From the NCBI RefSeq assembly GCF_021155765.1, contig NC_060107.1:18276501-18340500 (forward strand): a stretch of DNA of 64,000 nucleotides, given 5' to 3'. The stretch comes from Diprion similis. Taxonomy: Eukaryota > Arthropoda > Insecta > Hymenoptera > Diprionidae. The notes under the pieces are model-generated. The model was given only the letters and a program-made list of their open reading frames with translations, was not told the DNA's origin and did not search any database. Position 1 is the first letter of the stretch; each line of letters begins with the position of its first letter. This document shows, in pieces, positions 36,642-51,873 of the stretch. A program made the translations under genes and the position numbers.

Positions 36642-36854
36642 AGCGTAACCCTTCATTAGACTTGTCAAACCAACATTCTTGCTTTTGTCGATCTCAACCG
36701 CATTAATTTCGTGGCGAATTTCTTCAAATAAATGACAGATGGCGTTGTTTACGAGCTGCGTGTTCACAGTCACTGTACTGTCACTGTAGTCACACAGTAC
36801 CATCAGCTTTAAAGAGTCGTCCGTGGATATGGACCGAACTTTTGCCGGGTAATA

Positions 36855-37761
36855 AGTAGCAATACAAGGGGGATTCTGCGTAGAAATACCTACTTTACCG
36901 GCAAAGCACCCTCCCCCGCCGCCGCCCAGCCCGGACGCAAACCCATCAAGGTTATCCCCACTCCGGCGAGCTGTCAGCGTTCTGCGATACCATCACTTTG
37001 AGTCTTGTCGGTAAGGGGTTACCATCGTTTTGATCCTTGTCGGTAAGAAATCCCCTAGATTGATGTGCCGATCGGTAAGAAATCCCCTAGATTGGCGTGC
37101 CGGTCGGTAAGAAATTCCCTAGATTGACGTGCCGGTCGGTAAGGAGTGCTCTGTCAGTTACCGTAGATCTTACCCTTACCATGCCTATCGAGCGTGATCG
37201 AGCGGGATCGAGCGGGATCGAGAATCTGCCTTACCGAGTGCAACCGCGAACCCTCAAACGTTCGAGCGCACCTCCGTGAATCCTTCAACGTTCGAACAAG
37301 AATCCTCGCACGTGTCGCGTTGATAGCTTCCAGAAAGTTCTAGAAGATTCTCCAACGATCGAGAGGTTTCGAGGCGGAAGTCCGACGTTGGGAGGCTTAC
37401 GCAATGACTCCGACAAGTTTCGACTTGACGTCGAGCGGCCCGAGGTCGAAGGATTGCGGTGCGACGTTGAATAAGACGACCCTGAACGAATTCTCGGAAT
37501 TTTAGGCTGACAAACAGTTCTCGGAATCGGTCGACGAGTTTCGACTTGACGTCGAAAGGTCTGCGTCCATCGGTTTTCGGTGCGACGTTGAATTCTGGAA
37601 GGTTCCGGAGCCGTGAGAAAGATAACCTGCGACCCTGAACCGATTCTCGGAATCTTAGGCAGACAAACAATTCTCGGAGTCGTCCGACAAGTCGCAACTT
37701 GACGTCGAGAGGCCTGCGTCCATCGGTTTTCGGCGCGTCGTTGAATTCCGGAAGGTTCTGA
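36855..37761 (+). repeat. P2 left terminal inverted repeat
   Basis: Mirrored by 50772-51679. The outer third holds many TTACCG/CGGTAA words and a 32-bp tandem array; the inner two thirds consist of three related 120-150-bp units that each contain AACGT.GCACCGAAAACC or its complement. Apparent long open frames here are by-products of the repeat and GC content. Polinton TIRs are substrates for the integrase and probably origins for protein-primed replication. Confidence 0.93.
37041..37142 (+). repeat. 32-bp tandem array in the P2 left TIR
   Basis: CGGTAAGAAATCCCCTAGAT starts at 37041, 37073 and 37105 with a final CGGTAAGGAG at 37137: exact 32-bp period. The array is mirrored in the right TIR near 51390-51495. 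Each unit begins with the CGGTAA word. Confidence 0.9.
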
Positions 37762-37874
37762 AATTTGCTAACGCTAACTCTTAACTAGCAGGAAAGAGGT
37801 TTTAAATCAACGGTTGATATTGGTAAAAACTTTTTTTTATTGATAATAGAGAGTACAGTATTACATGTTTGCTC

Positions 37875-38438
37875 TTATTCAACGGTATCCTGACCATCAA
37901 GCTCCGGACAGTAAGAATTAAGAACTGGTCGAGTAGATGCCAACAGGCTTTTGTATTTCAACAGAAAATTTCGCAGTAACAATACGTTTTGAGCAGCACA
38001 GTTTGGATGTGATATAGAGTGATGTGTACAGTTCAATTTAGTATCTGACATTTTGTTCAATTTTTGCAACGACGGACAACCCAAATCCATCAGATCGACA
38101 ACTTCAACGTTTTCGCCTAGAACTTTCTGCAGCCAAATCTTCTTCTCCAATCCTTTTACGTAAACCGTTGACGCGTCACGCAGCGACACGCATTCGACGG
38201 TGAAATTAAGCTTCTCGAGAGGTACGTCACCGCCTTTCCAGGATAACCCGTGATAATTCCGTGACAGCCACAAATTTTCGCTCTCAAACGGAGCGAGTAA
38301 AGAATTCCAATCGTACAACGGTTGGAAGAGAAAAATTGACGGGTTAGTTTCTTCGTTGACTGATATAACCGCTAACTCTTTTGGCGTAAAATCAGGGCCT
38401 GGTCTGTTGAATCCTTGCACGTCAACTATGAACTCCAT
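37875..38438 (-). CDS. Exonuclease-like Polinton protein (P2)
   Basis: Intact frame of 187 codons from MEFIVDVQGF. I chose this ATG, not the one at 38474, because the P1 copy starts here and the TATA box (38477-38484) leaves room for transcription only upstream of it. Motifs in order: EFIVDVQGF, KELAVISV, WLSRNYHGLSWKGGD, STVYVKGLEKKIWLQ, EVVDLMDLGCPSLQ, and a C..H....H.NCAAQNVLLL block. The layout recalls a DEDDh 3'-5' exonuclease fold with DxQ replacing DxE, so it may be inactive or structural. The family is common next to MCP in insect Polintons; its function is not known to me. Confidence 0.6.
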   Translation of the reverse strand: MEFIVDVQGFNRPGPDFTPKELAVISVNEETNPSIFLFQPLYDWNSLLAPFESENLWLSRNYHGLSWKGGDVPLEKLNFTVECVSLRDASTVYVKGLEKKIWLQKVLGENVEVVDLMDLGCPSLQKLNKMSDTKLNCTHHSISHPNCAAQNVLLLRNFLLKYKSLLASTRPVLNSYCPELDGQDTVE

Positions 38439-38476
38439 CGTGAAAAAGACTGAATCGTAAATCGCAGCCTTCAAGG

Positions 38477-38484
38477 TTTTTATA
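38477..38484 (-). promoter_or_regulatory. TATA box overlapping the MCP stop codon (P2)
   Basis: On the minus strand the MCP ends LV then TAA inside GGTATAAAAACC, so the stop codon is part of TATAAAAA. It lies 39 bp before the ATG of the exonuclease-like gene. P1 has the same overlap (GGTATAAAAGC) near 27710. Confidence 0.65.
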
Positions 38485-50556: not shown

Positions 50557-50697
50557 TCACAATTTCAAACTTTTCAACTTCTTTGTCACTTTGTTAAGTT
50601 CAGATTTTTGATGAACAATTTTTTTCAAGTCTTCAAGATTTTTTAAGAACAGATCAATTCGCCGGCCTAGTTGTGCTTTGTCGGAGGTTCGCTTCAT
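50557..50697 (-). CDS. p46, small helical protein (P2)
   Basis: 46 codons from MKRTSDKAQLGRRIDLFLKN to KKLKSLKL. Strongly Lys/Leu-rich with coiled-coil-like spacing. It lies 44 bp after TATAAAAG (50742-50749) and just before the OB-like gene. The P1 counterpart is p60. Shared position, MK.T start and SEL..(V/L)T pattern support a real gene. Confidence 0.6.
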   Translation of the reverse strand: MKRTSDKAQLGRRIDLFLKNLEDLKKIVHQKSELNKVTKKLKSLKL

Positions 50698-50741
50698 GAG
50701 AGCTGAAGAATCGTTGTGTGAATAACGTTCTGAAATTCAGG

Positions 50742-50749
50742 CTTTTATA
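50742..50749 (-). promoter_or_regulatory. TATA box of the p46/OB-like pair, with TGGTGGG upstream
   Basis: On the minus strand TTGGTGGGAGAAATATGGTA runs into TATAAAAG. The same arrangement (TGGTGGGG, about 13 bp, GGTATAAAA) precedes the exonuclease-like gene in P1 and P2. It sits only a few bases inside the right TIR. Confidence 0.6.
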
Positions 50750-50771
50750 CCATATTTCTCCCACCAAGCGC

Positions 50772-51679
50772 TCAGAACCTTCCAGAATTCAACGTTGCAC
50801 CGAAAACCGATGGACGCAGGCCTCTCGACGTCAAGTCGCGACTCGTCGGACGATTCCGAGAATTGTTTGTCTGCCTAAGATTCCGAGAATCGGTTCAGGG
50901 ACGCAGGTTATCTTTCTCACGGCTTCGGAACCTTCCAGAATTCAACGTCGCACCGAAAACCGATGGACGCAGACCTTTCGACGTCAAGTCGAAACTCGTC
51001 GATCGATTCCGAGAACTGTTTGTCAGCCTAAAATTCCGAGAATTCGTTCAGGGTCGTCGTATTCAACGTCGCACCGCAATCCTCCGACCTCGGGCCGCTC
51101 GACGTCAAGTCGAAACTTGTCGGAGTCATTGCGTAAGCCTCCCAACGTCGGACTTCCACCTCGAAACCTCTGGATCGTTGGAGAATCTTCTAGAACTTTC
51201 TGGAAGCTATCAACGCGACACGTGCGAGGATTCTTGTTCGAACGTTGAAGGATTCACGGAGGTGCGCTCGAACGTTTGAGGGTTCGCGGTTGCACTCGGT
51301 AAGGCAGATTCTCGATCCCGCTCGATCCCGCTCGATCACGCTCGATAGGCATGGTAAGGGTAAGATCTACGGTAACTGACAGAGCACTCCTTACCGACCG
51401 GCACGTCAATCTAGGGAATTTCTTACCGACCGGCACGCCAATCTAGGGGATTTCTTACCGATCGGCACATTAATCTAGGGGATTTCTTACCGACAAGGAT
51501 CAAAACGATGGTAACCCCTTACCGACAAGACTCAAAGTGATGGTAACGCAGAACGCTGACAGCTCGCCGGAGTGGGGATAACCTTGATGGGTTTGCGTCC
51601 GGGCTGGGCGGCGGCGGGGGGAGGGTGCTTTGCCGGTAAGGTAGGTATTTCTACGCAGAATCCCCCTTATATTGCTACT
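50772..51679 (-). repeat. P2 right terminal inverted repeat
   Basis: Reverse complement of 36855-37761 with few differences (for example GATTAATGTG versus GATTGATGTG, and CTACCTTACC versus CTACTTTACC). It holds the mirrored 32-bp array and the three 120-150-bp units (AACGT.GCACCG at 50790, 50943 and 51064). It is followed by GTAATA. Confidence 0.93.
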
Positions 51680-51873
51680 GTAATATGCACAAATCCTGAT
51701 GCTGAACGGTGATTCGAATTTCATCGCTGTTGTTGAAAGTTGACGAGACGTAAGGTTTGTGAGCGTGAATTTCGTAATGCGCAATGGATTCGTCGAAGAT
51801 GACCGGTGTTTGAATGTTTAAGATTTCTTCTTCCATTGTACGTAGCAGACGATAAAACAGCAAGATCGGATTC

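What the first reader, a model, noticed from the sequence alone, without database searches (positions are those of the whole stretch)
36849..51685. A complete Polinton (P2) with 6-bp target duplication sits inside another Polinton's capsid gene
Seen: inverted termini AGTAGCAATA..., TIRs of about 907 bp, GTAATA on both flanks, and the P1 MCP reading continues across the insertion once P2 and one GTAATA are removed. Knowledge: Polintons make 6-bp duplications and have AG...CT termini. Polinton-in-Polinton nesting with both elements' gene sets readable allows direct comparison of two lineages in one locus.
Basis: partly seen in the sequence, partly recalled or inferred. Interest (0 to 1): 0.85.

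Follow-up and report, generated by a model that had tools for sequence, protein, structure and literature searches.

The report
Polinton nested in a related Polinton
In the genome of a pine sawfly, one virus-like jumping element (a Polinton) has landed inside the capsid gene of a related Polinton, leaving the usual 6-base footprint; it is a well-documented example of ordinary nesting of known elements.

Summary
Window 36855-51679 is a structurally complete 14.8-kb Polinton/Maverick (P2). Its ends are AGTAGC...GCTACT, its TIRs are 907/908 bp (889 matches, 18 mismatches), and GTAATA flanks both sides. It lies in the major-capsid gene of another Polinton (P1). In 11 of 11 P1 paralogues fetched the two flanks are contiguous, sharing the 6-bp target site: the empty site. 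The genome is probably Diprion similis (contig lengths).

Corrections: P2's capsid gene has a premature stop and its polymerase is broken. P1's capsid gene carries two further lesions, an 8-kb hAT with an 8-bp duplication and a 22-bp insertion. P1's integrase/polymerase half is not in the window; P1 resumes beyond a copia element. P1 and P2 are colinear subfamilies, about 76% identical, multicopy and clustered in the same chromosomal territories, so nesting there is unsurprising.

A side result of more interest: the P1 and P2 integrase genes are far more alike than the rest (four-fold sites 79% against 51%), which suggests exchange between lineages.

The parts
36849..36854 (.). target-site duplication GTAATA, left copy
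   Evidence: single copy in P1 paralogues
36855..37761 (+). P2 left terminal inverted repeat (907 bp)
37875..38474 (-). P2 ORF of unknown function (ORFa), 42-50% identical to P1's in the copies where it was found
   Evidence: no Pfam match
38474..39697 (-). P2 major capsid protein (DJR); premature in-frame stop at 38537-38539, 21 codons before the relative's end
   Evidence: Pfam PF21738 E=4e-113; ORF end; tblastn of P0001
39912..40598 (-). P2 putative penton/minor capsid protein (label from synteny and recall; no database or fold support)
40629..40988 (-). P2 putative adenain-like protease
   Evidence: weak: Peptidase_C5 E=0.022, below cut-off; adenovirus proteinase 1avp E=0.06
41009..41803 (-). 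P2 PLA2-like domain protein
   Evidence: PF08398 E=2e-11
41875..42579 (+). P2 A32-type packaging ATPase
   Evidence: PF04665 E=3e-6
42637..43545 (+). P2 ORF of unknown function (ORFc)
   Evidence: no Pfam match
43579..43980 (+). P2 ORF with short T7-tail-fibre-like match
   Evidence: PF03906 E=2e-6
43940..44866 (+). P2 retroviral-type (rve) integrase with a partial, sub-threshold C-terminal chromodomain
   Evidence: PF00665 E=2e-14; PF00385 E=3e-4, 20.9 bits against cut-off 25.1
45017..48762 (-). P2 family-B DNA polymerase (organellar/viral type), in four open pieces: in-frame stops near 48454 and 45296 and a frame change near 47305-47329
   Evidence: PF03175 E=4e-28; open pieces; tblastn of P0121
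50219..50593 (-). P2 small ORF beside the right TIR; resembles P1's small ORF at the left end
   Evidence: compared by eye
50772..51679 (-). P2 right terminal inverted repeat (908 bp)
51680..51685 (.). target-site duplication GTAATA, right copy
25697..26290 (+). P1 left terminal inverted repeat, AGTAGTAATAC...
27710..28593 (-). P1 MCP, residues about 112-407
28594..36641 (.). hAT transposon (8,048 bp) in P1 MCP, 8-bp duplication AGCGTAAC, ends CAGGGGCGGATTT
36642..36854 (-). P1 MCP, residues about 51-114, with a 22-bp insertion
51680..51836 (-). P1 MCP, residues 1-52
52054..52737 (-). P1 putative penton (same caution as P2's)
52768..53175 (-). P1 putative protease
   Evidence: weak Peptidase_C48 E=0.09
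53115..53930 (-). P1 PLA2-like domain protein
   Evidence: PF08398
54081..54704 (+). P1 A32-type ATPase (open frame begins inside the gene)
   Evidence: PF04665
54799..55002 (-). LTR of a copia element that interrupts P1; other LTR at C3:18350048-18350251 outside the window; duplication read as AGAAG (edges uncertain by a base or two)

Best explanation
P2 is a Polinton/Maverick, a virus-like DNA element. It was inserted by its own or a sibling's rve integrase into the MCP gene of an older P1-subfamily Polinton, through a 6-bp staggered cut that was filled in to give the GTAATA duplication. Shown: structure, TIRs, duplication, empty site, and both families multicopy. Inferred: that the integrase did it. 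The landing in another Polinton is ordinary, because both subfamilies share the same restricted chromosomal territories. P1 was also hit by a hAT and by a copia; P2 is now decayed (TIR mutations, broken MCP and PolB).
For: TIRs and duplication. Empty site in 11 of 11 fetched P1 paralogues. Pfam matches for DJR MCP, A32 ATPase, rve integrase, DNA_pol_B_2. Other P2-type copies: of 10 TIR pairs fetched, 9 could be read at both ends; 5 have a perfect 6-bp duplication, 1 matches at 5 of 6, 3 have none. P1-type copies: of 5 fetched, 4 perfect and 1 at 5 of 6 (read by eye). 21 of 27 P2-type places (the window's own included) lie within 1 Mb of a P1 place, a territory of 12% of the genome. Left/right TIR differences: 5 private to left, 8 private to right, 5 with both letters among 10 paralogous TIRs.
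Against: No raw reads were available, so the junctions are not checked by reads. 3 of 9 readable P2-type copies lack the duplication; one of these lies in a perfect palindrome. P1's own duplication is not confirmed: the left flank is AACGTG, the candidate right end at C3:18362642 has ATAATG. The lists of places behind the clustering are capped by the search tool and were collapsed by hand.
Confidence: 0.96

Rival explanations
1. The nest is an assembly artefact: two Polinton copies joined wrongly.
For: Repeats of this length with many copies are the usual place for misjoins; reads could not be checked. A perfect palindrome elsewhere (C13) may be such an error.
Against: A misjoin does not produce flush junctions on both sides with a 6-bp duplication that is single in the paralogues (11 of 11 contiguous); contigs carrying the loci are 10.9-28 Mb long.
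Confidence: 0.02
2. P2 was led to P1 by targeting (a chromodomain integrase reading heterochromatin that covers resident Polintons), so the nesting is directed and not chance.
For: Partial chromodomain at the integrase C terminus; 21 of 27 P2-type places within 1 Mb of P1 copies against 12% expected.
Against: Only 1 of 11 examined P2-type insertions (the window plus 10 pairs) sits in a P1 copy at high identity; 2 of the 20 other flanks show weak or short Polinton-like matches. Clustering can equally come from poor removal in low-recombination DNA. The chromodomain score is below Pfam's cut-off.
Confidence: 0.25
3. P2 arrived by homologous recombination or gene conversion within a P1 copy rather than by integration.
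For: P1 and P2 are about 76% identical and colinear.
Against: The junctions lie at P2's exact termini with a 6-bp duplication; recombination would exchange, not nest, homologous parts.
Confidence: 0.01

Closest known systems
Mavericks/Polintons of vertebrates (PMC8097293; passages and section 7 read)
   Same: Family-B polymerase, integrase, ATPase, MCP; size 12.7-24.6 kb, TIRs 46-1447 bp, 6-bp duplications, end motif (AGT)2...(ACT)2 (P1 the same, P2 AGTAGC...GCTACT)
   Different: Gene order differs from the layout given there; a PLA2-domain protein is present here (not looked for there)
Megastigmus wasp adintovirus and other hymenopteran relatives
   Same: MCP 63% (P0043) and integrase 63% (P0355) identical; more than 30 of the 120 listed MCP relatives bear a hymenopteran species name, 60-91% identical
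   Different: Here two subfamilies nested in one locus; no evidence on free virus or particles
Polinton-like viruses and virophages interrupted by retrotransposons in protists (PMC12220804, PMC8547959; passages read)
   Same: Virus-like elements broken by nested mobile elements; coding genes disrupted
   Different: In the passages seen the inserts are retrotransposons; here the insert is another Polinton, beside a hAT and a copia

Membership tests
Polinton/Maverick | family-B DNA polymerase | tested here: met
   PF03175 E=3.5e-28; gene now broken
Polinton/Maverick | retroviral-type integrase | tested here: met
   PF00665 E=2e-14
Polinton/Maverick | double-jelly-roll major capsid protein | tested here: met
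   PF21738 E=4e-113; no PDB sequence match
Polinton/Maverick | FtsK/A32-like packaging ATPase | tested here: met
   PF04665 E=3e-6
Polinton/Maverick | adenain-like cysteine protease | tested here: inconclusive
   E=0.022 Pfam, below cut-off; E=0.06 PDB
Polinton/Maverick | penton/minor capsid protein | tested here: inconclusive
   no Pfam match, no meaningful PDB match; model too poor, mean pLDDT 41.6
Polinton/Maverick | long terminal inverted repeats with AG...CT ends | tested here: met
Polinton/Maverick | 6-bp target-site duplication | tested here: met
   family copies (not all have it)
Polinton/Maverick | virions or active transposition | not testable with these tools
   needs bench work
hAT transposon (28594-36641) | 8-bp duplication, matching CAGGGG ends, hAT transposase | tested here: met
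   PF05699 and DUF4371; duplication and ends

The most novel reading that the evidence does not exclude
Co-resident Polinton subfamilies exchange their integrase gene, and the integrase (with its partial chromodomain) steers them into the same heterochromatic territories, so that nesting, co-residence and gene exchange feed each other. Support: the P1-P2 integrase block stands out in DNA identity (90-92% in its three central 300-bp windows against 57-87% in the others), in four-fold sites (91 of 115 identical against 349 of 686, Fisher p=8e-9) and in protein identity (275 of 308 against 301 of 386 for MCP, p=7e-5). In 8 pairs of relatives MCP and integrase are about equally far from P2. The steering, and that the territories are heterochromatic, are untested.
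Probability: 0.25. Interest if true: 0.5.

Novelty: new member of a known kind. Interest (0 to 1): 0.25.

Why it matters
It gives a layered locus (P2, a hAT and a copia, all inserted in P1) with empty sites for all three insertions, and a pair of subfamilies whose uneven divergence can be used to test gene exchange between animal Polintons. The nest itself changes no view: Polintons, their 6-bp duplications and nested transposons are all known. No title or abstract start listed announces a Polinton inside a Polinton, but the library lacks most subscription journals and I read passages or one section of three papers only, so this is no claim of a first.

Tried and rejected
Assembly artefact and homologous recombination were considered and set aside because of the duplication and the empty sites. 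A structure model of the putative penton was too poor to search (mean pLDDT 41.6). PDB sequence searches gave no support for penton or MCP and only weak support for the protease. A genome-wide count of MCP copies by protein search did not complete, so copy numbers rest on DNA searches in which only 40 candidates each were scored. P1's right end: a TIR at C3:18361993-18362642 was found, but its flank does not match P1's left flank, so P1's own duplication stays unproven. In one search the protein P0241 stood for P1's integrase although its subfamily is not known; the figures that I rely on use the fetched P1 copy L042.

Full report
Identity of the genome. The window is C3:18276501-18340500 of a 269-Mb, 60-contig assembly. 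An MCP relative, P0005, named for Diprion similis, lies on a contig of 17,816,656 bases, exactly the length of contig C12 here. I take the genome to be D. similis, a pine sawfly; this rests on that match and on further Diprion hits whose contig lengths equal C2, C3, C4, C5 and C13. Some Diprion hits bear other lengths.

The element P2. Its TIRs are 36855-37761 and 50772-51679, with 889 matches and 18 mismatches; the termini are AGTAGC and GCTACT, and GTAATA lies on both flanks. Genes by Pfam: DJR MCP, PLA2-like protein, A32 ATPase, rve integrase with a sub-threshold chromodomain, family-B polymerase. 'Penton' is named from position and recall, and 'protease' rests on weak matches. The MCP aligns to a Neodiprion fabricii protein over all 408 residues at 90%, with one in-frame stop near the end. 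PolB lies in four open pieces and its relative P0121 aligns in three blocks with a frame change. P2 is structurally whole but not coding-intact.

The empty site. P1 is a multicopy family: one search gave 42 rows, of which 33 are P1-type places at 83-100% (the window's included), 7 are P2-type places at 80%, and 2 are fragments. The 11 best P1 places other than the window had been made loci. In all 11 the left and right flanks of P2 map to adjacent sequence and share the bases that are duplicated in the window, exactly 6 in 10 of them; in L011 the match on the right starts one base in. The same test showed that 28594-36641 is a separate insertion: its flanks overlap in the paralogues by the 8-bp duplication AGCGTAAC plus one base that agrees by chance. 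With its matching ends CAGGGGCGGATTT and its DUF4371/hAT-dimerisation transposase it is a hAT. A third insertion, a copia, enters P1 at 54799. Its second LTR is at C3:18350048-18350251, with 3 mismatches in 204. I read the duplication as AGAAG; the matches overlap by 11 bases because neighbouring letters also agree. The P1 flanks are contiguous in 5 of 5 P1 copies examined. P1 resumes at C3:18350258. P1's MCP also bears a 22-bp insertion, absent from both copies aligned and, by length, from 11 of 11.

Family behaviour. Of 10 other P2-type TIR pairs fetched, 9 were readable at both ends: 5 perfect 6-bp duplications, one 5 of 6 (GGAATA/GGAATG), three none; one of the three lies in a palindrome whose 2,000-base flanks are identical inverted. 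The five P1-type copies fetched, chosen among the 11 for their orientation, show CAAGTC, GCTCCC, AAAGCT and CTCTTC duplications and one 5-of-6 case; I read these by eye, in one case allowing for a changed letter in the terminal AGT. Six bases and (AGT)2 ends agree with vertebrate Mavericks (PMC8097293, passages and section 7).

Age. Of 18 substitutions between P2's TIRs, 5 are private to the left, 8 to the right, and 5 have both letters among 10 paralogous TIRs, so they may predate insertion. About 13 new substitutions in two 0.9-kb repeats is 0.7% per repeat; at a recalled insect rate near 3e-9 per site per generation that is of the order of two million generations, a rough figure. The copia LTRs differ by 1.5%. 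P1 differs from its nearest paralogues by about 5% in the stretch searched. The candidate P1 right TIR differs from the left at 43 of 593 ungapped sites, but its flank does not match. P1 is the older element by logic, since P2 lies in it. The order of P2, hAT and copia is not settled.

Why nesting is unsurprising. P1 and P2 places concentrate in the same stretches, such as C14:0.5-4.7 Mb and C13:10.4-11.5 Mb. I collapsed the 51 rows by hand to 27 P2-type places and used the 33 P1 places; further P1 places (for example on C6 and C10) were not used. 21 of the 27, or 20 of 26 without the window's own, lie within 1 Mb of a P1 place, a territory holding 12% of the genome. On these counts about 0.04 nested events would be expected under uniform insertion and about 0.3 if insertion is confined to that territory. 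The lists are capped, so both are probably too low. Among the 20 flanks (2 kb each) of 10 other pairs none lies in a P1 copy at high identity; two carry weak or short Polinton-like matches, and one carries a copy of the hAT.

The two subfamilies. P1 and P2 are colinear at 75-77% DNA identity over the long stretches compared; shorter pieces of one P1 copy range over 67-79%. Of 8 genes compared between P2 and up to five P1 copies, 7 gave dN/dS, all between about 0.03 and 0.21, which points to purifying selection; ORFc gave no ratio, and PolB and the tail-like ORF were not tested. Some P1 copies carry stops, and several dS values are saturated, so the ratios are only indicative. The integrase stands apart: dS 0.32-0.35 against 0.7 up to saturation in the other genes; DNA identity 90-92% at 43752-44651 against 57-87% in the other 300-bp windows; four-fold sites 91 of 115 identical against 349 of 686 in eight other ORFs, p=8e-9, with the tail-like ORF, 29 of 46, left out of that test. 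Inter-lineage exchange is the likely cause, but gene trees with Neodiprion copies are needed; no protein named for Neodiprion was among the 120 integrase hits listed.

Verdict. A real, well-supported nested insertion of a known kind of element into a known kind of element. Interest is modest.

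Noticed in passing
28594-36641: A hAT transposon with 8-bp duplication AGCGTAAC sits in the same P1 capsid gene; an internal inverted repeat 28831-29096/32995-33260 lies in it.
   Followed up: yes
54799-55002 and beyond the window (C3:18350048-18350251): LTRs of a copia element in P1; about 18.5 kb lie between them, more than I would expect of a copia alone, so further insertions are probably nested in it.
   Followed up: partly
43600-44870: P1-P2 integrase block is much more alike than the rest of the elements: likely exchange between subfamilies.
   Followed up: partly
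38474-39697: P2's MCP is closer to a Neodiprion fabricii protein (350 of 386) than to the Diprion P1-type P0005 (301 of 386): subfamilies older than the genus split, or horizontal transfer.
   Followed up: no
L027/L028 (C13:10908791-10931253): A P2-type TIR pair whose 2,000-base outer flanks are identical inverted copies: a large perfect palindrome, recent inverted duplication or assembly artefact.
   Followed up: partly
one search places, e.g. C5:3981561-3987187, C12:1300093-1307951, C13:11031885-11039295: P1-type TIRs in inverted pairs only 5.6-7.9 kb apart: candidate internally deleted, non-autonomous Polintons.
   Followed up: no
26471-26908 (+) and 50219-50593 (-): A small ORF (similar by eye) lies beside the left TIR in P1 but beside the right TIR in P2, keeping its orientation to the terminus: perhaps a gene moved between ends.
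   Followed up: no
1053-2276: P-element-like transposase (Tnp_P_element).
   Followed up: no
60177-60941, 11956-12847, 8123-8559: Further inverted-repeat (foldback-like) elements, 87-91% complementary arms.
   Followed up: no
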